The notes beneath the pieces were generated by a model that worked only from the letters and a program-made list of their open reading frames with translations, had not been told where the DNA came from and ran no database searches. The translations under genes were made by a program, and so were the position numbers. 64,000 nt of DNA, taken from assembly GCA_003024785.1 (NCBI GenBank), contig PUQB01000373.1, positions 62,001-126,000 of the forward strand, in the 5' to 3' direction. Shown one piece after another: positions 34,170-64,000 of this stretch. The stretch's first letter is position 1; each line of letters begins with the position of its first letter. This DNA is from Selaginella tamariscina. Taxonomy: Eukaryota > Streptophyta > Lycopodiopsida > Selaginellales > Selaginellaceae.

Positions 34170-36590
34170 CTAAGGCATGAGAATATCGCACCTTTTCCCG
34201 ACCTCCATCTCGAACCTCTCCGCAGCCTCCGCGGACAACCCGCTACAGTTCTTCAGGTTCAACGCTGTAAGCGAGTCGCACATCCTCCTTATCATGTTCA
34301 ATGCCTCGTCCGTAATCCAGTCGCAGTTCGCGACCGTGAGTGTTTTCAAGGTCTGCCCAACTGCAATAACCACCGCAAGGATACCGTCATCCGTTACCGT
34401 GCACTTGGAGATATCCAAGTCCTGTATATCTGTACACCTGCTAGCTAGCATCCCGATACCCTTGTCTGTGATCTCCCGGCAACCGCTAAGTACCACTGAC
34501 TGCAGCCCGAGACAACAGTTGGCCATCTCGGATACTGTCTTGTCCGACAGCTTTGTACACTCGCTGAGGTTAACCGTTAACAAGTTACCCCCGCTGAGCT
34601 CCAGCAAACCAGACATCCCGTCATCCGTTATCCTCCTGATCCACTGAGATCCAGATGCTCCAGATTGGGGAACAGCCTCCCGGCGTACTCAAGGCAACTG
34701 TCCTCAATACCTTCACAGTACGTGATACTTAACGACCTCAGAGCCGCACACTGAACCGTGCTCATTGTGGTTTTTATATCATCTACAGAAGAATCTTCAT
34801 CGTCTTTGTCTCGATCCTGTACCAGGGAACACCTGCTGATGTGTAGAGACTTCAAATTCTTTGAGGTATACCTGAGAGAGGTAGTGAATCCACGGTATGT
34901 TACACCAGCACACTTTTCAACATGTAGCCCGCTCACAGCCTGACACCCCTTTACGAATCCCTCGAGTCCCTTGTCTGTGACTCTCTCGCAATCCATGAGC
35001 CAGAGCTTGGACAGGGATTTGCAGGAGTCACCTAAGCGGGACAAGAACCTGTCTGTGACCCCCTGACAATTGCTGAGTACGAGCAGCTTGAGACATCGCA
35101 GACCCTCGGAAAATGTAAAGCTTAAGAAGCCTGCCTCACTAACCTTGTCAAGACCAGAGAGAACCATCTTTGTAAGAGACAAGGACTTTGAGCGATTTCC
35201 AAGAGTTGCTAGTCCCTTGTTCGTGATCCCAACCTGCTCCAGCTTAAGCTTTCTGAGAGCTCCGATAAATGCAACAATCTTATCACCAACTTTTGGACAT
35301 CTGTGCATTCACAAGCACAAGCAAACTCACCAATTCAGTATCATTGTCTCAAAATATTCTCTCTCTCTCTCTCTCTCATACGCAATCCACTAACTGATTC
35401 CCACATTTATACACACGCACTAACTAAATTCCCAATTTCATGCACACATAGACACGGGATGCACAAGCAGACGCACGTATATGTAAGACTAGTAACTAAA
35501 TACATCCATTACCTGCTTATGGACAATACCATAAGATTTGAGCAATTCGCAGCGATGGCCTCAATGCTGGCATCCCCGATGCCTTCACACGAATCGATAA
35601 TCAAGTTGGAAAGCCTCAAACACCCGTTTGCTATGAACTTCATACCTATGTCTGTGAAGTTCGGACACTTGAGCACATCTAGGTTCTCTAAAAGCCGGCA
35701 ACCCTTTCCAATGGTCTCCAGTGAGGAGTCCGTTATATCCGGGCAGTCCCACAGTGTTAGCGACTTGAGAGCATTGCAACATATCCCGATAGTGCGGAGT
35801 CCGATATCCGTAACGCCTTTAGCCGATCTCTCGCCTGGGCCCCTCGGACTGTTAGCTTCCCAAGCCCGCCACGAGCAGATGTCCCGACTGCTATCGACGC
35901 CAGCCTCACATTTGTTGCTTTCTTCCCCTCCAGGCATCGGGAAAGATCACCTACACTAACTCATAGTCAATACAATAACCCGTGTGTGTGTGTGAGAGAG
36001 AGAGAGAGACAATGAGCTAACTTAAGTCATGACTTCTGTGTGAATTCTAAAAAGAAAGTCTACATGCATATAAACAAAAATGTATGCATGTATATATATA
36101 CCAAAATGGAATGTATAGTGGCTTCATCCCATATGAAAAAACTTACAATAGTAAATGTGTCATATTTTGTATTACCTATAGCCCAATGCGGTTGTTTTTC
36201 AAGCTTAAGAACTTCCTCGCCGGAAGAAGTGGCCCGGCCCGGCTGATTAACCTCGGATTCATCGAAGATTTGCTTCGGACAACGGTGAAATTCTTCTCTA
36301 TGCATCTGGCTCTGGATCATTAGCCACCTCTTACACACACACGCGCAATTAGAACGGTCCCATGCAGATGGAATCGATGCAAAGATGGCTATAAGAATTT
36401 CATCCGGTATCCTGTCCATCGGCTCGTCCCAGCCGGATTTAAGCCGCTTTGATGGTCGCTGACGGTTTCTACTACCCCCCAGAAAGTGGGAATCCTCGTC
36501 CCCGGTCCATTCTGCATCACAATCGCTTGTTGCTCCTGCCATTCCTTCTCTCTTCCGTATTAAGCTGAATCTTATTTTCTTGACTGCCAT
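34170..36590 (-). CDS. EBF1: EIN3-binding F-box protein (EBF1/2-like)
   Basis: Exon 1 (36590-about 36176) has a basic N-terminus and an F-box (RIPDEILIAIFASIPSAWDR, then VCKRWL). Exon 2 (about 35953-35511) begins DLSRCLEGKKATNVRLASIA and GLGKLTVRG, typical of EBFs, and enters the LRRs. Exon 3 (about 35300-34170) carries the remaining LRRs, with repeated patterns such as LWLMDCERVTDKGLEGF and VVLSGCREITDKGIGML, ending CDILMP. EBFs are SCF adaptors that send EIN3/EIL transcription factors to the proteasome and so restrain ethylene responses. Single-base losses shift the frame near 35835 and 34635. Introns contain CT/GA microsatellites. Confidence 0.92.
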
Positions 36591-37626
36591 CTCTTCCTTT
36601 GCATCTAAATCGAATACTGCACAATAAATGTACGATCAATATATCTCATCAAAATACTGGATTTCTATCCACTTACCCCAGAAACTGTCTACATCCGTTA
36701 TACATATGATATTTAAGGTTTCGAAAAGTACTACAGCGGTGTAGAAGGAAAAATCGTTGATAAATCCTTGGAAAACGGGCGATTTGTCTCAGCAAATGGT
36801 AGAAATTACCTAGAGAATCCAAAAATGACTAAAATCTCGGACAATTTTCTGACAAAATCACTAATTTTTGAAGAATTCTCTACAATATGCTACAGAAATC
36901 ACTAAAATCACAGCAATTTCATGGAAATCACAGCGATTTTTACAGAATGCACAAATAAATGAGAAATCAAGGAGAAATCCGACAGAGAACGCATCGCTAA
37001 GCCTAGAATCGCTAATCCGATACAATACCTAGACAAGAAGCGGATCCTCGAGATCTTGCGCGGACGATACCAAAAAATGAGACCCTTTTAGGGTTTGCGT
37101 TAACCATGGATTTTAAGAAGAACAGAGCAGCAATAGGAACCCGCCACGTGGCCTCGGCTGCTAATGCCATGTGCGTGAACATCGAGCCGATGATGGACCA
37201 TGCCAGCGATTTTATACAAGTTGCAAATTATAATACTTAGAAACTTAAACGCAAAGTTCAGTTCACCACTTAATTATCATTTAATACTGGATTATATTAA
37301 TTAAGATTCATTATTGTGTTGCGTGCATCTGCCGTAAAGAGAGGTGCATCTGTAACACACAAATAAAACTAGAATCCAATATATCGTATATACACACACG
37401 CATGTATGTATAGGCATTGTGTGTGCAACTCTGAACTAAATAAAAAAAAATGTGTGTGTGTGTGTCTCTCTCTCTCTATATATATGGACACACATTTCTA
37501 CGTATTGTGAGGCATACATACAGTTATATATGTGTGTGTGTGTGTGTGTGTGTGCGCGCTGGAGTGGGAATGTATATATAAAATGTGAGAAGATATATGC
37601 ATATAATGAAGAAAAACGTACCTTAT
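36591..37626. promoter_or_regulatory. Leader and promoter region of the EBF-like gene
   Basis: Immediately upstream (36700-37000) is a stretch with many short AAATCAC/AAATCTC words and no long frame, probably 5' untranslated. TTTAGGGTTTGCG (telo-box) lies near 37088 and a CCACGTGG (G-box core) at 37144. 37300-37560 is AT-rich with TG, CT and TATA runs. This gap also separates EBF from the small gene at 37627-37874. Confidence 0.45.
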
Positions 37627-39396: not shown

Positions 39397-42300
39397 ATGG
39401 GGCGAATCACGCGCTCATTGTCATCGAATTCGACTTCTTCCACCGGGCATGCTGTTCATAAGCAGCAGGATCGTGGGAGTAAGCATTCCAAGGCGGTAAT
39501 CGGAGGCGCGGCTGCGGCAGGAGGAGTTTTTCTCATATTCTTGCTCTTTCTGACCCTGCTCGTGTACAGAAGAGTGAAGAAATCCAGTCCGAGAACAAGT
39601 CCGGCCGATCAGCAGGTCCGGCTTCGGAGGTTCAAATACAGGGAGCTCAGATCTGCTACGGGAAGATTCGGCGAGGCGAACAAGATAGGTCAGGCGGATT
39701 CGGCTCGGTCTACAAAGGGACTCTCAAGAATGGGCAGGAGGTCGCCGTGAAGAAGCTGGACACCGCTTCATTGCAAGGTGAGCGCGAGTTCATGAACGAG
39801 CTCTCTATTGTCGGCAGCATTGCGGGGAACTCCGGGAGTCATGTGTGGGGCTGATAGGATTTTGCGCGGATTCAAAGCGGAAAATGCTCGTCTACGAGTA
39901 CATGTCCAACAGGAGCCTGCAGGAGGCGCTGTTTGATGAGAAGCACAGCTTGCAGCTGGATTGGGAGAAGAGGACAAAGATCATTCTCGATGTTGCTCGT
40001 GCTCTAGCGTTTCTACATGGGAAGTGCGAGCCTCCAATCGTGCACGGGGATGTGAAGCCGAGCAATGTGCTGCTGGATGCTCAGTTCTCTGCCAAGCTCG
40101 CGGATTTCGGGCTCGCGAGGGTTAAAACCGAGGTACAAGATCTCCGAAGCGAGGATGTTCAGAGGGATTCAATGGAGCAGGAACGAGCTAGGTCGCAGAT
40201 AATGGCAAGAGATCGGGAGCGCAAGCGGAAGAAACGGGTCGAAGTACATGCTAGGGTTCATCGGGAGCAAGAATCCAAGGACGAAGAACAGCAGAACCAG
40301 CATGTTATTCAGGTAGATCAAACCGTAGAGGTTCCTAAGAAAGCCGAGGATCTCCAAAAAATGCAGATAAGGGACCTCAGGTGAGGAAACGGAACCGGAG
40401 CAGAGGCTTCCAGCTGAAAAGCGGTTATCTCCTGCTTCTGGAGATGAATCTCACGAGTCACCGGTTCTATCATCGCCCACAAGCAGACAGACTGAAAACA
40501 CAAGATCTCACGGGCAGCTGGGACTCCGAGCAGCATTGGAGGTGCAGATGACGACGATGACTGGAGCAAGATGAGCCAGTCGGCTTATGGAACAGAGCCC
40601 GATACATGGAGCAAGGTGAGCCCGTCCGAGATGGATTGCCGGTCCGAGATTAGTATAGATAGTTCTGCACAGAGGTCGACTATGAATTTTTTGGGCAGGA
40701 AACGGAGGAAAAAGTCGGCTTCTCCTTCGAAAAGCAGAGAATGGTGGTGGAAACAGGAAGGTGGTGTTCATGCCGGGGGTGGAGAATTCAGTATCAAAGA
40801 GTATATTGTAGATTGGGTTTCGTGCGAAAGAGGCCGGTCTAGAACTCGTGAGTGGCCCTGGAATCCCTCAAGTACTCCTCCGGGTAATATGTCATTATAC
40901 AAATACATTATGACATGCAATATGTAGGTTTTTTTACTTTTATCCCTTTATTCATACGTCTTCACTTTTATAAGTTGCATTTGTGGCTGTGTTTGTGGTG
41001 TGGATTCACGCGTGGGGTGATGTAGATTTTCAGCATGACATTGGGATATTTTTTCTCGGTCTTTGCATGCAACTCCTTTATACGATTCTCTTAATTTAAT
41101 CATTTTTAATTGACCGTCATCGTTTTTTCTTATAAATAACCAAGTATAGCATACATATAGCTCTCGAACTCTATTTCCTGTGATAGTAATCCAGGAGATT
41201 TATTGTAGATTATATATACTATATGAGTTGTATATCATACATTTATATGACGATACATACAGGCAAAGATGGCGGTGGAAAGAAGAATAAGCAGGCAAGA
41301 TCTGGAAGCTTAGAATGGTGGGCAGAGTGCGATGATAATGACGATGACGAGCTTGCCAGGAGGATCAAGTCGGAGCAGAAGAGGAAAAAGAAGCTCAAAA
41401 GCAGCAGGACAAACTTGCAATGAGCGTTAGCAGGATGATAGCAGAGACTGGTGGAGGTAATATCAATATTTTTCATTATTATAGTATAGTTTAGTTACAA
41501 TATACGGTTCCTAGTTATAAATAGATAGCTGCTAGTTATTCGCACAAAACACACGCTCATATATACGCTTGTGCTATGTGGAAACGTAAATTTACCTTTT
41601 TTTGTATATACACGATATATTAAGGTATAATAAAGTATTATAATCTATATTATGTGCAGGGGTCAAGGTGGTGGAAACACGCCTGTACCTGTTTCGGGAG
41701 AGCTCTTCGATGACTTAAGCGGGGAGATCACGAAGAATGACGAAAACGAGAAGATGAAACGGAGTATGAGTGAAGAGTCTTTTACATTTTACCATTCGGG
41801 AGAGATCCCAACAAGGTAATATAGATTGATAATAACAGAAAAAACTTGGTAATTATAAATATAGCTGATATTCCACTGAAACAGTAATACCAATAATGCT
41901 GGTTTGAACAATAGTATGGAACTGCTTGCGAACTTGAACAATTCTGATGCTGCAAATGGTCGCAGACGAGTTCGGACCCGTAGCAGGGAATGGTGGAGTG
42001 GTGAAATGCAACGAGGCAAAGAATGGTGGTCGGGAGAACTTTCCAGCAAAAGGATGAGAAACAAGAATCTTCCAAAAGGTTCTGTCTGTCTGTCTCTCTC
42101 CGCATGTGTACGCTTGCGCGTGTTGGATAAAAATACATCTAGAGATATGTTATATGTTTATTCATGTATGTATATGTCTTCGTTGGGAAGTCTCTTTATG
42201 TTATATAGCTGTAGATTCTCTCTTTCCTTAGACGCTACATAGATTCTTATATGATGGAATATGTAGCTGTATAACTATCTTATCTAATTTTGTGCTATGT

Positions 42301-51740: not shown

Positions 51741-52520
51741 ACGGACTCCTATACCGGGAAGGTCTCCTGTACGTTCCTGTTGGTGTTTGAAGGACTTGTG
51801 TGGTACAGGATTGTCATGATACCCTGGCTACAGGACATTTTGGTGTGGCCAAGACAGTTGAGTTGGTGATTCGCAACTATTTGTGGTTTGGGTTGCGAGG
51901 TTTTGTGGACAAGTTTGTACGGAGTTGTGACACCTACAATAGGTCGAAGATGCCTCGTCATGCGCCCTTTGGTCTTCTTCGTCCTCTTCCTGTTCCTTCT
52001 GCTCCTTGGAGATCCATTTCTATGGATTTCCTCACAGATCTTCCTCCTTGTGGATTTGATGCAGTTCTTGTGGTGGTTGACCGTTTCACCAAACAGGCTC
52101 ATTTCCTATCATGTCACAAGACTTCTACATGCCAGACAACCGCTGAGTTGGTGATCTGCAAAGTATTTTAAAACCATGGTCTTCTTGAGAGCATTGTTTC
52201 TAATCGAGGCCCAGAATTCATGTTCAAGTTTTGGCGAGAATTTCTCTAGAATCTACAAGTTAAAGTGGACCTTTCTTCAGGATATCATTCACAAACTAAT
52301 GGGCAGTCAGAACGCATGATTCAGACCTTGGAGCAATATCTTCGCTGCTTCATCAGTTACCAACAGGACAACTGGTTGGACCTTTTTTCAAGGCAGAGTT
52401 TGCCTACAACAACTCCGTTCACGCATCAACAGGCCCGACACCTTTCTTTGCTCTTATAGGCTACCATCCATGTTTTGACTTTGCTCTTCCTGCTTCTCCT
52501 TCTTTAGCTCCTACAGTACA
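51740..52520 (+). pseudogene. Chromovirus integrase, interrupted
   Basis: The zinc-binding module is damaged (HDTLATGHFG, then CDTYNR with Tyr in place of the second Cys). The catalytic core shows D in SMDFLTDLPP, N in place of the second Asp (VSNRGPEF) and E in GQSERMIQTLEQY. Stops lie near 51789, 52170, 52247 and 52459. The substitutions are mostly G-to-A or C-to-T. Confidence 0.87.
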
Positions 52521-52862
52521 GGATCGTCTCCAGCATTTCGTCAAGTACATGAGGATCTGCGGGTTCATCTTCAGCAGGCACAAGAACAGTACAAGCGTCA
52601 TGCTGATGCTCATCGTCAACCGACACCTACATACAAGATTGGTGATCGTGTGTGGCTTCTTCGTTGGCATATTCGCACCAACAGGCCTTCTTCTAAATTG
52701 GATTTTCAACGATTGGGCCGTTACAGGATTGCAGTTGAGGTCAATCCTGTAGCTTTCCGACTCGATTTACCATATATGGTGAAACTTCATCTTGTGTTTC
52801 ACACCTCTTTGTTGGAGCCGTATCATCTTTCTTCTCTTCTTGGTCGTGCTTCTTCTTCTCCC

Positions 52863-53090
52863 CCTCCTATGGTCATTGACGGTGAACCTGAGTACGAAGT
52901 TGCAGCCATCCTTGATTCTCGTCTTCATTGTCACCAACTTCAATACTTGGTGGATTGGAAAAGTTATTTACCTACCGATCTCACTTGGGAACCTGCATCC
53001 AACTTACTACATACTTCTTCTAAAATTGTTGCTTTCCATCGGCGTTATCCGGTTAAACCAGGTCCCAAGACTTGTGGAACTCGTCCTTAG
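52863..53090 (+). pseudogene. Chromodomain at the C-terminus of pol
   Basis: EYEVAAILDSRLHCHQLQYL, then VDWKSYLPTDLTWEPASNLL, is a chromodomain, used by chromoviruses to target heterochromatin. This assigns the element to the chromovirus branch of Ty3/gypsy. Confidence 0.88.
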
Positions 53091-53101
53091 GGAAGAAGTG
53101 C

Positions 53102-53562
53102 TGTCACAACCCGATACAGGATACGGGTTACAGGATATGCTTATAGGATATACCTACAGGATATGCCTGCAGAATATTCCTACAGGATATGCCTATAGGA
53201 TATTCCTACAGGATATGCATGCAGGATATTCCTACATGATATACCTATAGGATATACTATAGGATATGCCTAGAGGATAAGGGTCACTATTTTTAGCTCA
53301 TGACCAGATTAGCTTAGAGTTGTTTATAAAAGCTTTGACCTAATTATTGTACAATCAGTTACTATCAACACCAATCTTTCTACGATCAATCTTGTCTTGT
53401 CTTGTTCTTATCTTGTCTTGCTCCTTGCCTCCTGCTCTTGTTTTGTTCCTGGTTCCTAGTTCCTGTCTTGCTCCCTGTCCTACTCCTTGTCCTGCTTCTG
53501 AGTCAAGCTTCTTTGTTCTCGGAATCCTGCTCACTTCCTTGTTTCTGGATCGTGGCTTGACA
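53102..53562 (+). mobile_element. 3' LTR of the chromovirus
   Basis: 461 bp, TGTCACAACCCG to TGGCTTGACA. It carries more GGATATGCC units than the 5' LTR and an expanded CTTGTCTTG/CCTGCTCC tract. The CG-to-CA change at position 7 relative to the 5' LTR fits cytosine deamination. Confidence 0.9.
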
Positions 53563-54059: not shown

Positions 54060-56850
54060 ATGGCACATGCGAACAAGGTGATTTGTCAATGCAAACTATG
54101 TCATGACTTGAATTTGGTTCCTAGACCAACAAGGGATTATCACAGAAAGTGCGACAAACAGTTGTTGCATGTAGAAAAAGGTTTATAAATGTTTATAGGA
54201 TTTGTAAATGTCAACTTTGTAAAGCTAGAAATCATGAACTAGGTGAGGTGCAATATTCTAGAACAAGATATGGGCAGCATTTGGTTCTGTGAAGGTTAAA
54301 AGAAAAATACTTCAATTTGCAAGTAGGGGGTTCCTTACAGCAAAAAACACAAGTTCCATTTACAACGAAGAAACACAAGAAACATTGCCGAATAGAGGGG
54401 AGAATGAAATAGATGATGGCGTGCATGTCAAGGTGTGTATGGAGCCACTACCACAACAAACTGTAGTACAGAATCCATTTGATGATCCAGACTTTGATAC
54501 AGCTGCATCCACAAAAAGGATTGTTGACATGAATGATGCTATTTTATTCTCTATTCTAAACCTTGCAAGTTTGTTTGAACAACACAGAGCACATGAAGCA
54601 TTAGCTAATGAAGTCTACAAGTTGCTTTTCAAGGAAGATGGACTTGCATCATTAAATAGCTGGTCATAAGGTTCCAACTAGTGTGACAACTATGAACCGA
54701 GACTTGGGAGCTCTAGAGGTTGACAGATATGTAGTGTGCTACCATAAGGATGACAAGCAGTATATATTTCTAAAAATTAAAGACAATGGAGCTCAAGTCA
54801 CTAAAGCAAACCGGGTGTCATGTGTTCATGTTTAAACATCTGCAAGGACGCCAAAGCAGTTCATGTACATCCCTCTTGGAGCTAGGCTTCATATGCTAGT
54901 GTCAACAAGAACAGTAGCTTGGAGTTTCCTACATCCATGGCGAGAGAAAGGATTGTCTTGGAAAACATACGCATGAGCAACCTTCAAAAATGCAAGAGTT
55001 TGGCACGGTAGCAATTGGCGTGAGTATCAATCATTTTTCACTTCATGTGTACAGTGGAAACTTCCATAACAATGTCCCACTCACAAGACAATGTTCCATT
55101 GATGGCCAACTAAACACAACATTGTTGCTACACGTTCAAAGAATGGAAGCATGACTTGCTTTGTTTGTGGTAACATCTTCAGTACTCTTGGGCATACGTA
55201 GAGGGTGATCCCAAAAACCTTTGCCATGATCATTTGTTCGGACAAGTTTTAGGCCACAAGTACAAGAATAAGGAGCACCATGTCTTTGAACATTTAGGGG
55301 GTAAACTGTGGTAAGAATGCAATTACAGAGGTTAAACACATGGTTCTGCCAGTTATGTTGTTTACAATTAAAGATCTTCCAGATGGTCCTGACAAGTATA
55401 ATCTTTCTAGTTGCGGAGTTGACCGATCTGTTTGTCAAAGGAACTCTAGTTCAGTATGCAGTTGACGTCCCCAATTTGCAACTTGACAAATATTTCAACT
55501 TATGTGTATTGACGCTTGTTGTTGTTGGAGACCATCTAGCTCAATGTGATATTACAAAACTATCACAAGATACATTTTCACTTTCCAAACTTTTTCTTTT
55601 TTAATCTTATATAATAGGCGGACTTTTACCCCCTTGATATTGTCATGTACATTGTGAAAATGGAGGCAAGTTTGAGAGGAACAAAGGAGAAGAGACACAA
55701 AGAGAGACATGTGTTTGTGGATCAACAGAATTATATATGGTTTGGTCACTACACTATGCTTTCAAAATTATTGGAGATTGTATTATAGACATAATGCATC
55801 ACTTAGCTCTGGGAGTTCTAAAGAAGGCACATGAAAGTTGTTGGAAGAGATCTCTTCACAAACTTCTAAAAGATATTTTAACAATCAGGTTGGAGACTGC
55901 TTTGGAGTATGGAGCACCTTGAAATATATTGACTATGATGGATTACTTCTTACTACATGATGGGAAAAGTTTGTTGCATTGTATTGCAAAGGAGGAGCTC
56001 CAAGTAATTTTGTTTACATTCAGAAGTTATAAATGTAACATACATGTCTATGTAGATGGTTACGTATGTGTTCCAACACAAACTTTAGCAAAGAACATAT
56101 GTCTGTTTAGCAAGCACACATGTTGGGATGAGTTCGTTAGCAAAGGTATAGCCATTGGAAGGTCTACCAAGAGATAGGTATCAAAGGAGGAAAAAGAAGC
56201 TTTAGCAGCGTTTGTATGAGTTGTCATCTAAGACCATAGAAAAGTACTCATTGGTACTTGTAGCTGACACGGTCTTTAGTGAGGGGACTACAATGTGAAG
56301 CTTCAGACAATTTGCTTGAGTACATTGTGAAGCTGGAGTTTATATTCACAACAAAAGTTAGTACATGGATGGTTATGTTCTTTGCAGGCGAGTACATGTG
56401 GTATAGTGTAGTGGATGGAGAAGTTGAGGTTGACACTGCTACCGGGATGAAAATTCTGCACAAAGAAGTTGAAGGATTTGATTATAGCAACATTCTGCCA
56501 GTGTCCAAGATACTTAAAGAAATGTGTGTGCTGCCTTGTCATGATGGTAAGAGACCAGGATATAAAATTGCAATGGAGACAAGAATAGCTAAATTGCCAA
56601 AGGCGTTGTTGAAGCTTGGTAAACCTGGCATTGTTCCAATCTAGCCTAGAAATGGAGAAGTTGTGGAGATGTACGCTCCCATCGGTGAAAATTGGTACGC
56701 TCTTATTGACACTGTTAATGTTGAAGACGAACAAGTATATATGACGTGGTTGCAAGCACAACAATAGGTTCTTATTGAAAATTATAAGGAGAAAAAACCA
56801 TATGAATAAGAAAGCATTATCAAGGTCATTCCTTGCATGGAGGCAAGATG
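54060..56850 (+). pseudogene. TNP2-like (CACTA, Transposase_21) transposase, decayed
   Basis: Starts MAHANKVICQCKLCHDLNLV, a CxCxxC module repeated at about 54200 (ICKCQLCKARNHELG). Then come DAILFSILNLASLFEQHRAH, VPTSVTTMNRDLGALEVDRY, TPKQFMYIPLGARLHMLVST near 54850, LVVVGDHLAQCDITKL near 55510, IIDIMHHLALGVLKKAHESC near 55775, YVDGYVCVPTQTLAKNICLF near 56050, and a C-terminal part GEVVEMYAPIGENWYALIDT near 56660. The order of segments fits the TNP2 transposases of En/Spm elements, which cut CACTA termini. More than ten stops and frame changes are present. A minus-strand frame at 55136-55438 is a shadow. Confidence 0.72.
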
Positions 56851-57159
56851 AAGCGGAAATTTTTTTTTTATTCCGACAAATAAAATACACCTGTAATAAT
56901 CATCTATAATTATTTGTAATGAAATTATTATTTAATAATTATCTACAATAATATATATCTATAATTTCCTAGTCCAGTTGAATCCGCCGCATAAGTAATG
57001 GTTGTTATTTTATATTGTATTAAAAGTAAATGTAATTAAATGAAGCTTTTAAATAATAAACATGTGTCAAGTCTAAAAAAGACATATGTTTTTTTATTTA
57101 ATATTTTATTTAATTACATTTATGTACATTTGAATTTCTAAATTGTTGCCAACTTGTAG
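56851..57159. other. AT-rich gap between the TNP2 relic and the ParB-like ORF
   Basis: 310 bp of AT-rich DNA with no coding frame. It could be an intron or the boundary between two genes. Confidence 0.5.
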
Positions 57160-59675
57160 ATAATGATGTTCACGTTTTCACTAATGATGTTGATCGTGGA
57201 GTTCTTCTTCAACTCAATGAAAGCCCATTTATGGAGGGGATCCAGTTAAATGTCTACTTCGAAAATCTCCATACTCATCGAGTAGGTGTATTCTCAGCAA
57301 ATATTGCTTCACAATACAAAACATCCACAAGTGGAGCAATCGTCCCTCTTCTTATTGAAGAAGAACACAGCAACATCATTAGGGTGATTGAGAGGGTGGC
57401 TCGGTCCTAGGTTCTTTACAAATCACGTTCAATTTGCTTAGAAATCTTCGGAAGCTAGAAGATGTGGGGAGAACATTAGAACAGCTGCAGTCAAGGATCA
57501 CACATGTTGATTCGGATTGCAAAAGAAAATCATTTGTCGTTTTGTCAGATGCACCTGTGGCATCCCATGTTGCAATAAGCCACAAGGAAATGATGTTGGA
57601 TGATAAGATTTATGAGTATAGGGTTAAGTATTGCAGCGTCAACCCAAACTTCAATTACATGCCAATCAACTAGTAACATGTAACTGAGCTCATGGAGAAA
57701 ATGAAGGAGGACAATTCTTACACCGTTCCACATAATGCTGTTTTGTGCCCATACTATGAAAGAAAGAAAGGCGCTAATAAAGTGTGGGTGACAACACCAA
57801 AACAAATCACGAAGATTCAGATGAAGAATAGAAAATCAATTAAATATTACATCATTAGTGGCCAGCACACAATAACAGCAGCCCAATGACTTCTCGATGA
57901 ACACAACAAAGGAACAATGGCAATAAAACTTTTTGAGCATACCTGTGAGAAGCTGACAAAAAGATTGGCTTTTTTAGTTAAGCCGAATCTCACAATCGAG
58001 CAGTACCATAAGTTATCGGCGGAATGGGACGTTGCCGACACTAACCACTACAACAGCAAAATATGGGAGAAGTTTAAACACACGTGAGCCATGTGGGAAA
58101 CTCTTGAGCGACCACAAAGAGCTATTGCATGGAAAAACAATGTTCAAACTACCAGGTAAGTAAATTGTCTTCGCATGATTTATCTCGCCAGTATATTAAC
58201 CTGTCTCTTTTTTTTAGAGAGTTGAAAAAATTTCTACTGCTGATTTTGCCCAGGTGGGCGGGAAGGAAGCATCCTTTTTGATGATGTTGATCTCTTGCCC
58301 TAAGGATAAGATCTTTGCCAAATGGTTGGGGATTATGGAATCCTTTGCAAAAGGAACACTGAAGAAAAAGCAGACAAGTGAAGAGGAGCCCTCATTGAAG
58401 TCTGCAAAGAAACCCAGTAAAATGCCAAAGGTTAAGTCTGTTCAATTTACAAAGAATGTAGACAACGATTTCAAGCTCATATAGTTGAAGCCTTTAAATG
58501 GAACAACGATGAAGGAGATGGAAGTCTTGGCTGATTTGGTGATTGATGGCAAACTACAGATTAACAATAACAGCCCCACCTCTCCTTTTCATGTCAAGGC
58601 AATGGAGTTAAAGATGGTCAGGCACTTCAAGGAGTGGTTGGGAATACACTGTCACAAACTGGGTTGGACCTCAGCCTCAACATACAAAGAGGTCAGCAAA
58701 TATTTGCATGTGACAAACGATGATATGCTTGTCTAATGGGTGAATCAATCGGAAGATCTGGGCAAGAATCTATTGCATGACAACGCCAAAAAGGAGAACA
58801 TTGCGATGACGCCTTCTCTTATGGCAGTCTTCAGCAGCGAAGAACCGAGTTGAACTTTATAAAGGAGGATGCTACGAAACAAACAAGCCCTACAGATGTT
58901 TGTTGTCGGATTCAGAGACTTTATGGGGTAACATCACTGCTTGTAGGAAACCGTTTCAATTGTTCATGATGGATCAGGGTGTCAAAAAATCCTTTGACAG
59001 ATAGGGCACTAGAGGATTGGTGGAGAAACTTAGCCGTGCAAGTATGTACAAAGAAGGTATTTATTATTGAATTCATGCTTGCACTTTCACTGATACCTAC
59101 GTTTTCAGGTATTTATTTCTTGATTCTTGCTCATGTCACGATACTTTTGCCTTCACCTTCGCCAAGAAGAATAGACATCGTTGGACAGGATTTTATATGA
59201 ATGATGCTAATCCCAAGTGCATTGATACGTTCACTTGGTTGTTAGGAATGTGCCAAACAATTTCAAATTTCCAAATGACTGGCCAGGCATCTGTTTGCAC
59301 TCCAACGGCCTGAACCTCCATCCGATACACCGATAGCTGAGAGGACGTATTCGGCAATGTACGTTATCCAAACATCACAAGTCAAGCGGCACAGAGCATC
59401 GTCAACTTGATCAGGGTCCTCACAGTGATGCATGGGTTTTTGACTACTGCACTAGGGGGTCCATCTTGAAGAGTGTTACCTTCAGGGTACATGTGTGTTT
59501 GCCGTTGAAAAGGATAAGACCATGGTTGAGGACCTGAACAAGTGGATAGAGAGGTTCTCAACTGACTACCCCAACAAACCCATACAGGAGTATTTGAGAA
59601 AGTTCCCTCCCGAGAAGTGCAATAGCTTTGAAGACGAATCTGGTTCAATGTCAGAATCTGAGGACGATCTTTAAT
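57160..59675 (+). pseudogene. ParB-like domain plus DNA methyltransferase-like domain, decayed
   Basis: Segments in order on the plus strand are DNDVHVFTNDVDRGVLLQLN (57162), LRNLRKLEDVGRTLEQLQS (57437), SVNPNFNYMPIN followed by VTELMEKMKED (57637-57712), and YYIISGQHTITAAQ, then LLDEHNKGTMAIKLFEHTCE (57847-57950). The PxxxxMPIN ... SGQHTITAA pair is the pattern of the ParB/Srx fold. A GT-AG intron may lie at 58156-58218. After a basic linker (58254-58736) come LSDSETLWGNITACRKPF (58905), PLTDRALEDWWRNLAVQVC (58990), then WVFDYCT.GSI, ECYLQGTCVFAVEKDKTMVE (59430-59525), which resembles AdoMet motif I with the acidic strand-2 end. The frame ends ESGSMSESEDDL. Stops and shifts are many. ParB-methylase fusions are familiar in phages and bacteria. 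Confidence in ParB is moderate, in methylase lower. Confidence 0.5.
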
Positions 59676-60096: not shown

Positions 60097-61130
60097 GTGC
60101 CACATGTTAGAATGACACCATTTCTATTGGCTTCAGTTCTTAAATCACTTTCTTTAGCGCCTGCAATATCTGAATCTTGTAAAGATGATGTACAATTAAA
60201 TGATAAAGGGATAGACAACGATATAGTGTCAACAAATAAATGTGAAAGGGAACAAACAAGTGAGTTGCAAAGCATTCAAAAGGCAACGTGACCCTCAGTT
60301 ACCTATGGCCATATTGTGTTGTTGGATGTCAATGGTGTTCTGCTTCATCGACAAAGGCCCAAGGAAAAAAAAAAAATCAAACAAGGAGATTTCATTCCTT
60401 GTCATGGTAAATTTCAATGTGATATCATTTTTCGTTTGGGGTTGGATTGTTTCTTTCAAAAGCTTAAGGAGATGGGTGCACTTGTGAGGATTTGGTCATG
60501 CATGCAGATTCACAACTTAACACTGCTATTGAATTTGCTTGAGAAATATTGTAGTGTTGCAGAAGAGGTGATTCGTAAAGATTGGATTTTTGACTAACGA
60601 ATATGTTAAAACCTCTCAAATTTTATAATATAAAAAAGAAAGCAAGCCATACTTCTTCAAGAATGAAAGAATAATTGGGACTCATGAAGAGATCAGTCGC
60701 TTAAGGATAATGAAGAACGCACAGATGTTAGTGGTAGACGACTCTCCTCAGAAGACTATGCTCAACCAAAACATTGCTTGTATTTATCCAATCACTTTCG
60801 ACCCATATTCTGATACCAATATCATGGATGAGCTAGTGAACTACTTGGATACGTGATTCAAAAAGAAGAATCTCAAAACTTTTATGCAGTATCCACCGTA
60901 TCAAACATTTTCTGATGCTTTTCTTTTTCGTGATTTTGAATTTTATAAAATGAAGGATAGCAACCGGATGCTTTATAATATTATTCTTAAGGAACATCAT
61001 TTTTTAGATGAGCCTTTATGCAAACCTTCTCTTATCACATATTATGTATTAACAAGGATGGTAACTCCCAATTGCATTCGTGAAAGTGTTAGGTGGTAGC
61101 AACAACATCAAGATATTGACCAAAATGATT
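60097..61130 (+). pseudogene. FCP1/NIF-type HAD phosphatase, decayed
   Basis: The first segment, 60097-60289, is a disordered N-terminus. HAD motif I reads VLLDVNGVLLHRQRPK near 60320 (DVNG where active enzymes have DxDxT or DLNG), followed by FFQKLKEMGALVRIWSCMQ near 60455 (motif II region). After a frame break KPYFFKN lies near 60645, then MLVVDDSPQKTMLNQNI near 60728 (motif III/IV VDDSP) and PITFDPYSDTNIMDELVNYL. This is the layout of the plant NLI-interacting-factor/FCP1-like family. Stops occur at 60290, 60597 and 60856 among others. The 3' half is duplicated next door. Confidence 0.72.
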
Positions 61131-62375
61131 CGATTAATCCGGAGAGTGATGATTTAGATAAAATGAGAAGATTTTTCTGTATGATAGGAAGAAAGTATTT
61201 ATAAAAAAATTAACTTGTTGATAAGAAAATGATTTCATTTATAATTATGTTTGATAATATGTTTTAATTATTGTAAACTATTTTTAGAATAATATGAATA
61301 TTCTAAAATATTTTAGGAATATTCCTTAATAAGGTTATTCAAGGATTAATTTATTAATTAATTATTATTTAAGGCTTAATTACATATTAATTAAATAATT
61401 AATTAATAAAAAAAACTTAAGTATTAATTAGTAATTTATTTTATATTCCCATTTTCACGTATCATGCCCACTTTAATTACAACGTGCATATGTTATAAAC
61501 CTCTCGAATTTCATAATATAAGAAAGAAAAGCAAACCATACTTCTTTAAGAATGAAAGATTAATTGAGCTTCATGGAGAGATCAATTAATTAAGGAAAAT
61601 GAAGAACGCACATATCTGAGTGGTAAACGACTCTCCTCAGAAGGCTATGTTCAACCAAAACATTACTTATATCCATCCAATCACTTTCGACCCATATTCT
61701 AATACCAATACCATGGATGAGTTAGTGAACTACTTGAATATGTACCTCAGAAAGAAGAATCTAAAAACTTTTGTAAGTAATATCCACCATATCAAACATT
61801 TTCTGATGCTTTTCTTTTTCGTGATTATAAAATGAATGAGAGTAACCAAAAGCTTTACAATATTATTCTTAAGGAACGTCATTTTTTAGATGAGCCTTTA
61901 TGCAAACCTAGTCTTATCACATCTTATGTATTAACAAGGATGACAACTCCTAACTGCATTCGTGAGAGTGTTAGGTGGTTTAAGATATTGACCAAAATGA
62001 TTCGATTAATCCGGAAAGTGATGACTTAGACAAAATGAGGAGATTTCTCTATATGGTTAAGGAGAAAGTATTTATAAATAAATTAATATGTTGATAAAAA
62101 TGATTTCATTTGTAATTATGTTTGATAGTATTTTTTTAATTATTGTAAACTATTTTTACAATGAAGAATAATATGAATTATTCTAAAATATTTTAGGAAT
62201 ATTCCTTAATAAGTAAGATTATTGAAGGATTAATTTGTTAATTAATTAATATTTAAGACTTAATTATATATTAATTAAATAACTAATTAATAATTAAACT
62301 TAAGTATTAATTAGCAATTTATTTTATATTCCCATTTTCATGTATCATGCCCATTTTAGTTACAACGTGCATTTA
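60604..62375. repeat. Tandem duplication of about 0.88 kb (two units)
   Basis: Unit 1 is 60604-61490 and unit 2 is 61491-62375. Each begins TGTTA(A/T)AAACCTCTC and includes the 3' half of the HAD phosphatase and an AT-rich tail with AAATATTTTAGGAATATTCC and ending CAACGTGCAT. The units differ by substitutions and short indels, so the duplication is not recent. Confidence 0.9.
61497..62070 (+). pseudogene. Second copy of the HAD phosphatase 3' half
   Basis: Contains VVNDSPQKAMFNQNITYIHP near 61617 (Asp to Asn in the VDDSP motif), NTMDELVNYLNMYLRKKNLK and DEPLCKPSLITSYVLTRMTT near 61890. It lacks the 5' half with motif I, so it cannot be an enzyme. It is the copy in unit 2 of the tandem duplication. 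Confidence 0.75.
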
Positions 62376-62869
62376 TGTTTGAATTTAATTTAATAAATCA
62401 TGTTTTAATTTTCTTTCTTTCATATTTCACAAAGTTATTAATGTGGCATTCATCTCTATTGTGATAGATGATATATATGAAAGTTATAATAGTCATAACA
62501 ATATAAAATGCAATAACCAAAAGTCACTTAAATATATATCTTAAAACAAGTGTTGTGTAATAGCATACGCACATGGAAGGCCAGTGGAATGTCAAGTATA
62601 AATAATATACTTAATCTTATTGGTTGTAGTTTCTTATGTGAGCATATGAGAACTAGTTGGTGGTTATGAAAAGTACATATGTATTAATGTTAGATTATTA
62701 CTCTTGCCATTTTAATGTAAATGGCAAAAACAAGGAATTTATGTGGTTTAGTTTTCATAATGGTATTCTCAATATTATTTGCAGTGTTTAATCATAATTA
62801 AGTGAGTGATTTATCTTTAATGATTTTAGTATTTATAACAATGCATATAACTTCTTTTTTTATTTTTTT
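62376..62869. other. AT-rich spacer, no gene seen
   Basis: About 500 bp of AT-rich sequence without coding signal, between the duplicated HAD block and the direct repeats at the window end. Confidence 0.5.
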
Positions 62870-64000
62870 CTTATGCAAAAATCAACAATAAGTGCAAATA
62901 CCAAGTCATTATATGTTTTGGGAACAGTTGCACCAATTTATATAGTAAGAAAAAGATTTCGCTCCATTTTATATATAAGTATTGTTAAGGGAATATTCAT
63001 TAAATTGGGTGGATATGCTTGTATAAATTAGCAAACCTTTAGTAGTAGTTTTGTTTATGCTAGCACGTCATGAAAAATTTAAGATTGCATATAGGTTCAA
63101 AAATATACAAAGATTATCATTAATATTCTTGTAGATAAACTTTAGTTAAAATTTATTAGAATTTTGGATAGAAATCAGCTAAATAAAATAATTTTTGATT
63201 TTTTATATTGTTTCTTTTACCCCATGTGTGTGGTGCTTTAGATGGTACACACATCATAAACCCTTTAAGAAGTATATGCCTGCAACTTAAGTAGATACAA
63301 ATGTCACACATTTATACTTTAAGAGATATGTGATGTAAATAAGTGTTTTTGAGATATTGATATTAATGCTTTAAAGGGTTAAAATGATCTAAGTCATTTA
63401 AAAAGTATTTTTTATTTATTACAAGCTTAAATCATGTGAGATATTATATAAACCTATTATTGACAAATAAGTAAAACTATATTTAATTTGTGATTTTATT
63501 TATTGATCTACTAGGTTTACACTTAACTCATATGGTTATCAACAAAGTTTAAATGATTAGGAAAGAGAAAATATTTAACAAACATGTTAGAAAGGTAAGA
63601 GTAACTATAGAGAATGTATTTGAAATATTAAAAAATAGATGGATGATAATAAATTGCCCTATTAGATTATTACTAACTCCAAGAGTAGCAAGTGCTTCAT
63701 AACTTTCTTTAACTTTTTATGTTTTTTCTTATGCAAAAATAGAGGAATAATCAACAATAACTGCAAATACCAAGTCATTATGTATTTGGGAACAGTTGCA
63801 CCAATTTATATGGCAGAAGAAGCATTTTATATATATAAGTATTGTCAAGGGAATATTCATTAGATTGGGTGGATATGCTTGTATAAACTAGCAAACCTTT
63901 AGTAGTAGTTTTGTTTATGCTAGCACATCATGAAAAACTTAGGATTAATAGCATATATGGGATAGGATATATAAAGAATATTCTTGTAGATAAATTTTGG
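62870..64000. repeat. Direct repeats of about 280 bp flanking a Harbinger relic
   Basis: 62870-63145 and 63722-64000 share CTTATGCAAAAAT, TGCAAATACCAAGTCATTAT, GAACAGTTGCACCAATTTAT, GGGAATATTCATTA and TAGTAGTAGTTTTGTTTATG, with about 90 percent identity by eye and a few short indels. The second copy reaches the window end. They sit on both sides of the transposase relic and could be part of a duplicated element. Confidence 0.85.
63210..63700 (+). pseudogene. PIF/Harbinger transposase relic
   Basis: CGALDGTHIINPLRS near 63231 is the motif around the first catalytic Asp of DDE_Tnp_4 (ALDGTHIP in intact proteins). At 63573-63660 FNKHVRKVRVTIENVFEILK, then NRWMIINCPI, matches the segment containing the last catalytic Glu (VENAFGILKxRW). 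The part between them is short and out of frame, so a large internal deletion has occurred. The downstream gene end reads into the second direct repeat. Confidence 0.75.

What the first reader, a model, noticed from the sequence alone, without database searches (positions are those of the whole stretch)
57160..59675. ParB-like nuclease fold joined to a DNA-methyltransferase-like region in a plant genome
The decayed frame has a PxxxxMPIN strand-turn and SGQHTITAA, the two landmarks of the ParB/Srx fold, followed about 500 codons later by WVFDYCT.GSI...CVFAVEKDK, which looks like AdoMet motif I with the acidic end of strand 2, and an earlier DRALEDWWRNLA segment. Such fusions are known in phages and bacterial mobile elements. 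In a plant chromosome it would suggest an acquired mobile-element or viral DNA-modification module. It directly follows a TNP2-type transposase in the same orientation, so it may be a second ORF or cargo of that transposon.
Basis: partly seen in the sequence, partly recalled or inferred. Interest (0 to 1): 0.75.

Follow-up and report, generated by a model that had tools for sequence, protein, structure and literature searches.

The report
Dead gene beside a possible transposon
A broken, intron-bearing gene remnant in a plant-like chromosome has a few motifs like a DNA-binding and DNA-methylating protein known from algal jumping genes, but the statistical tests run here do not establish that identity.

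Summary
The stretch is a real coding remnant: 4 stops in 246 codons against 10.9 expected, 3-base periodicity and two intron-like GT-AG breaks. Internal stops and frame changes make it dead.

Identity is not established. Pfam, NCBIfam, PADLOC and PDB-sequence searches gave no ParB, methylase or transposase match, and no relative was found. Against 27 phage ParB proteins the SGQHT box gives a weak local signal (1 of 300 shuffles as good). Stricter tests fail or are near chance: Box I scores -8.4, and 62 of 400 shuffles match as many landmarks. The methylase half has no reproducible signal, and the upstream transposase is unconfirmed.

Closest precedent: a ParB-plus-methyltransferase accessory protein in an Ectocarpus transposon, said there to have green and red algal counterparts (PMC12477816, passage). 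A land-plant relic of that kind is possible, not shown.

The parts
54262..56780 (+).
   Evidence: Open segments in changing frames; no Pfam transposase match for fragments or read-through; no homologue. The TNP2-like look is recalled motif resemblance only.
57027..57122 (.). 42-nt imperfect inverted repeat (79%) in the A+T-rich spacer between the two decayed genes
   Evidence: (I1)
57114..57410 (+). Open segment, possible N-terminal part of the second gene
   Evidence: no Pfam match
57416..58153 (+). Decayed segment with the NP...MPIN and SGQHTITAAQ strings (possible ParB/Srx-like domain), 4 internal stops
   Evidence: stop deficit P 0.0045; periodicity 3 of 2000; ParB Box II signal weak
58156..58217 (+). 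Intron-like break (CCAG/GTAAGT ... TTTTTTTTAG); the 3' end could lie two bases further
   Evidence: sequence; by eye
58218..58865 (+). Decayed middle coding segment, 4 internal stops, no family match of note
   Evidence: periodicity 0 of 2000; stop deficit P 0.0285
59000..59035 (+). DRALEDWWRNLA segment
59057..59108 (+). Second intron-like break (AAG/GTATTT ... TTTTCAG)
   Evidence: sequence; by eye
59433..59674 (+). C-terminal part with WVFDYCTRGSI and, after a frame change, CVFAVEKDK and an acidic tail; possible class-beta amino-methyltransferase C-terminus
   Evidence: periodicity of 59466-59674 20 of 2000; no signal at motif I against phage methylase profiles

Best explanation
A dead, multi-exon accessory gene of a DNA transposon. 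Its ancestor may have been a ParB-like-plus-amino-methyltransferase protein of the kind reported in algal transposons: the ParB-like domain would hold the protein on the element's DNA, and the C-terminal enzyme would put N4-methylcytosine or N6-methyladenine there, marking the element's own DNA. Shown here: a decayed coding remnant on the same strand as, and just downstream of, another decayed stretch. Inferred: that the two form one transposon, the ParB and methylase identity, and the function. The present copy cannot make the protein.
For: Coding signal; intron-like breaks. Weak ParB Box II signal: 1 of 200 shuffles, 1 of 300 for the whole segment and 0 of 300 for a core chosen after the fact; rank 2 of 320 window ORFs; top place among 852 six-frame pieces, though 1.1 against 0.9 bits for the next. 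Phage ParB-like proteins with GNHT at this place exist (L010, L013, L068), so SGQHT is a possible Box II. Published precedent with the same two domains in a 1104-aa transposon protein (PMC12477816, passage).
Against: No ParB, methylase or transposase match in Pfam, NCBIfam, PADLOC or PDB sequences. Box I scores -8.4 against a phage PSSM whose own members score 11.4 to 34.4. With two misanchored rows dropped, another site in the window scores highest for Box II (14.2 bits), a score that 29 of 200 shuffled windows and 8 of 1000 shuffles of the 2.58-kb region reach. 62 of 400 shuffles match as many invariant columns. Methylase: 116 of 300 and 237 of 300 shuffles score as well. No DPPY-type motif IV seen by eye in the three forward frames. 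No terminal inverted repeats with target-site duplication found.
Confidence: 0.35

Rival explanations
1. A dead transposon ORF of an unrelated, undescribed plant family; the ParB and methylase motifs are chance look-alikes read out of a decayed sequence.
For: No ParB or methylase model matched; motif tests near chance; GQHTxxAAQ turns up in 24 viral stretches that read as unrelated.
Against: Several landmarks in a sensible order (NP box, GQHT box, FDYCTxGS at the C-terminus), and a published precedent with that architecture.
Confidence: 0.35
2. A host pseudogene, not part of a transposon, that happens to lie beside a decayed element in a repeat-rich stretch.
For: Intron-like breaks; no terminal inverted repeats with target-site duplication found that enclose both genes; upstream transposase unconfirmed.
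Against: Neighbourhood is repeat-rich (Ty3/gypsy-type element; repeats); transposon genes of eukaryotes can have introns too (recalled).
Confidence: 0.2
3. A remnant of a large DNA virus inserted in the chromosome, carrying a ParB-methylase gene.
For: ParB-methylase fusions are common in phages (a generic consensus matched 719 phage records, many of the listed ones annotated as ParB or methylase; PMC12704722, passages).
Against: Intron-like breaks; no viral gene recognised among the stretches scanned; no relative in viral contigs or, at E up to 1, in phages.
Confidence: 0.04

Closest known systems
Sola1-1_Ec32 accessory protein of Ectocarpus and the algal transposon proteins cited with it (PMC12477816, passages seen)
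   Same: Both have, or are read as having, a ParB-like domain and an amino-methyltransferase domain in one long protein beside a DNA transposase; the same paper says giant EnSpm elements with accessory genes are reported in red algae.
   Different: That gene is on the strand opposite the transposase, in a Sola-1 element, with a predicted 1104-aa product; here the gene is on the same strand, dead, and neither domain is confirmed. No sequence of the algal protein was available for comparison.
Phage ParB-N6/N4 methylase fusions (PMC12704722, passages)
   Same: The Box II region resembles G(H/N)xx...AA; methylase motif I lies near the C-terminus in both readings.
   Different: The four phage proteins with both parts that I read in full are 404-450 aa (L005-L008), with 31-40 residues between the N and G landmarks in the set; here 73 residues lie between them and about 525 codons between SGQHT and the FDYCT string; scores are at or near chance.
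DNA transposons of fungi that carry TET/JBP dioxygenases (PMC12730594, passages)
   Same: Principle: a DNA transposon carries an enzyme acting on DNA modification.
   Different: Different enzyme, different hosts.

Membership tests
ParB/Srx superfamily | Match to ParBc or related curated models | tested here: not met
   Pfam, NCBIfam and PADLOC negative
ParB/Srx superfamily | Box I (NP-containing strand and turn) | tested here: not met
   NP present, but PSSM score -8.4 against 11.4-34.4 for the phage rows the PSSM was built from
ParB/Srx superfamily | Box II (GxxR / GHxR / GNHT ... AA) | tested here: inconclusive
   hhalign 1 of 300; best Box II site in the window with 26 rows but not with 24 cleaned rows
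ParB/Srx superfamily | alpha+beta fold | tested here: inconclusive
N6/N4 amino-methyltransferase, class beta | Match to methylase models | tested here: not met
   Pfam and NCBIfam negative on pieces and composites
N6/N4 amino-methyltransferase, class beta | Motif I near the C-terminus | tested here: inconclusive
   FDYCTRGSIL lines up in register with phage motif I but 116 of 300 and 237 of 300 shuffles score as well
N6/N4 amino-methyltransferase, class beta | Motif IV ([DNS]PP[YFW]) | tested here: inconclusive
   Not seen by eye in the three forward frames; decay could hide it
EnSpm/CACTA (Transposase_21) transposon | Transposase domain | tested here: not met
   Pfam negative on fragments and read-through; no homologue; decay could hide it
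EnSpm/CACTA (Transposase_21) transposon | CAC...GTG-type termini with short target-site duplication | tested here: inconclusive
   No 12-bp inverted repeat with at most 1 mismatch plus a 2-9-bp duplication between 52.9-54.3 and 59.7-60.5 kb; decay or wider bounds could hide it

The most novel reading that the evidence does not exclude
A land-plant DNA transposon of EnSpm/CACTA type carried its own ParB-like plus amino-methyltransferase protein, extending from algae to land plants a class of transposons that write a bacterial-style mark on their own DNA.
Probability: 0.25. Interest if true: 0.6.

Novelty: new member of a known kind. Interest (0 to 1): 0.3.

Why it matters
If the reading is right, plants once hosted transposons that could put N4-methylcytosine or N6-methyladenine on themselves, which bears on where bacterial-type 4mC enzymes of land plants came from. 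PMC8885841 (passage seen) mentions a 4mC methyltransferase of bacterial origin recruited in Marchantia. It would also show that ParB-methylase accessory genes are older or more mobile than the algal cases. At present it is a lead on a dead copy.

Tried and rejected
Tried without result: family libraries on pieces and read-throughs; PDB sequences (searches list only unrelated weak matches, best E 0.12); protein database (for this gene; for the upstream stretch); viral and genome contigs; phages; Rfam on the window; single-sequence fold; terminal repeats.

Not used as evidence: phrog_21535 (E 4e-4 to 1e-3) matches residues after SGQHT, but it is a phage family of unknown function with a 104-position profile. 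phrog_2245 (nucleoside triphosphate pyrophosphohydrolase, E 0.004 to 0.016) covers the stretch up to the SGQHT box; I did not follow it. Lactococcus and Streptococcus phage proteins that tblastn placed at E 1 to 6 (one looked at) carry no helpful annotation.

Profiles. The first ParB profile came from too strict a filter (15 proteins, 14 representatives); one search repeats it with 143 proteins, 27 representatives for ParB and 9 for the methylase. In one search the C-terminal composite reached a methylase score matched by 8 of 200 shuffles, but at a stretch away from motif I, and the ParB segment itself scored about as well there (10 of 200); with the larger profile this vanished (116 of 300). 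One search anchored 26 of 27 representatives, at least two wrongly; the two-block score of this region ranked 3 in the window, and 15 of 40 shuffled windows reached the window's top score. One search kept 24 rows and did not print the score of the SGQHT site. The core segment was chosen after seeing the whole-segment result.

The protein database's plant coverage is unknown to me, so its silence says little. The genome search was asked 14 times with the same request and never answered.

Ten paper searches showed, in the titles and abstract starts listed, no report of a ParB-methylase transposon gene in land plants. Three likely sources (Iyer 2011, the Bostrychia genome paper, PMC4738411) are not held, so I make no claim that it is unpublished.

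Full report
What was claimed. A decayed frame at 57160-59675 was said to join a ParB/Srx-like fold to a DNA-methyltransferase-like region, following a TNP2-type transposase in a plant genome.

The observation. The quoted strings are in the sequence on the + strand: NPNFNYMPIN 57641-57670, SGQHTITAAQ 57857-57886, DRALEDWWRNLA 59000-59035, WVFDYCTRGSI 59433-59465, CVFAVEKDK 59492-59518. The two 'methylase' strings are in different frames. The region was coding once: the frame at 57416-58153 has 4 stops in 246 codons, against a mean of 10.9 for the best frame of 2000 Markov sequences (P = 0.0045), and 58218-58865 has 4 against 8.9 (P = 0.0285). Codon-position bias was reached by 3, 0 and 20 of 2000 shuffles for 57416-58153, 58218-58865 and 59466-59674. 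Two intron-like GT-AG breaks, seen by eye, lie at 58156-58217 and 59057-59108. With internal stops and several frame changes it is dead. blastn found no second copy in the window.

Surroundings. Upstream is a Ty3/gypsy-type element with integrase zinc finger and chromodomain, then 13-bp tandem repeats, then decayed coding stretches at 54.26-56.78 kb. To my eye the latter carry TNP2-like strings, but this is recall: Pfam gives no transposase on fragments or read-through, and the protein search gives no homologue. No enclosing terminal repeats with duplication were found.

Methylase test. But 116 of 300 and 237 of 300 shuffles score as well. With the smaller profile one composite was matched by only 8 of 200 shuffles, at a place away from motif I, and the ParB segment did about as well on the same profile (10 of 200). 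The region's ORFs rank 24, 31 and 33 of 320 at best, the best region rank in the six-frame search is 17 for the C-terminal model and 28 for the full one, and Pfam has no match. No DPPY-type motif was seen in the forward frames. There is no reproducible support.

Precedent. In Ectocarpus a 21.5-kb Sola-1 transposon family carries a gene for a 1104-aa protein with a ParB-like domain and an N4C/N6A methyltransferase domain. [quoted passage not shown] The cited sources are not held. Phage fusions of ParB with N6/N4 methylases are frequent (PMC12704722, passages), and a ParB-methylase of Bacillus cereus is said to nick DNA (PMC5512222, passages). Fungal transposons carry TET/JBP enzymes (PMC12730594, passages).

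Verdict. A real but dead coding remnant next to a possible dead transposon. The ParB-methylase identity remains a lead: membership tests by curated models are not met, and most motif tests are at or near chance. Intact relatives from plant genomes, which no tool here could reach, would settle it.

Noticed in passing
60292-64000: Repeat units spaced about 855-891 bp, 84-100% alike over the matched pieces, with a fragment of an NLI-interacting-factor-like phosphatase (PF03031, E 3.9e-5) at 60292-60594.
   Followed up: partly
51791-53279: Ty3/gypsy-type retrotransposon pieces with integrase zinc finger, Tf2-like SH3 and chromodomain in different frames, followed by an 11.7-copy 13-bp tandem repeat at 53129-53279.
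   Followed up: partly
57027-57122: 42-nt imperfect hairpin in an A+T-rich spacer between the two decayed genes, possibly a small inverted-repeat element.
   Followed up: no
57890-58084: Weak match (E 4e-4 to 1e-3) to phrog_21535, a phage family of unknown function; probably chance.
   Followed up: partly
34631-36632: Leucine-rich-repeat and F-box pieces on the minus strand, and a protein kinase piece at 39782-40378 on the plus strand.
   Followed up: no
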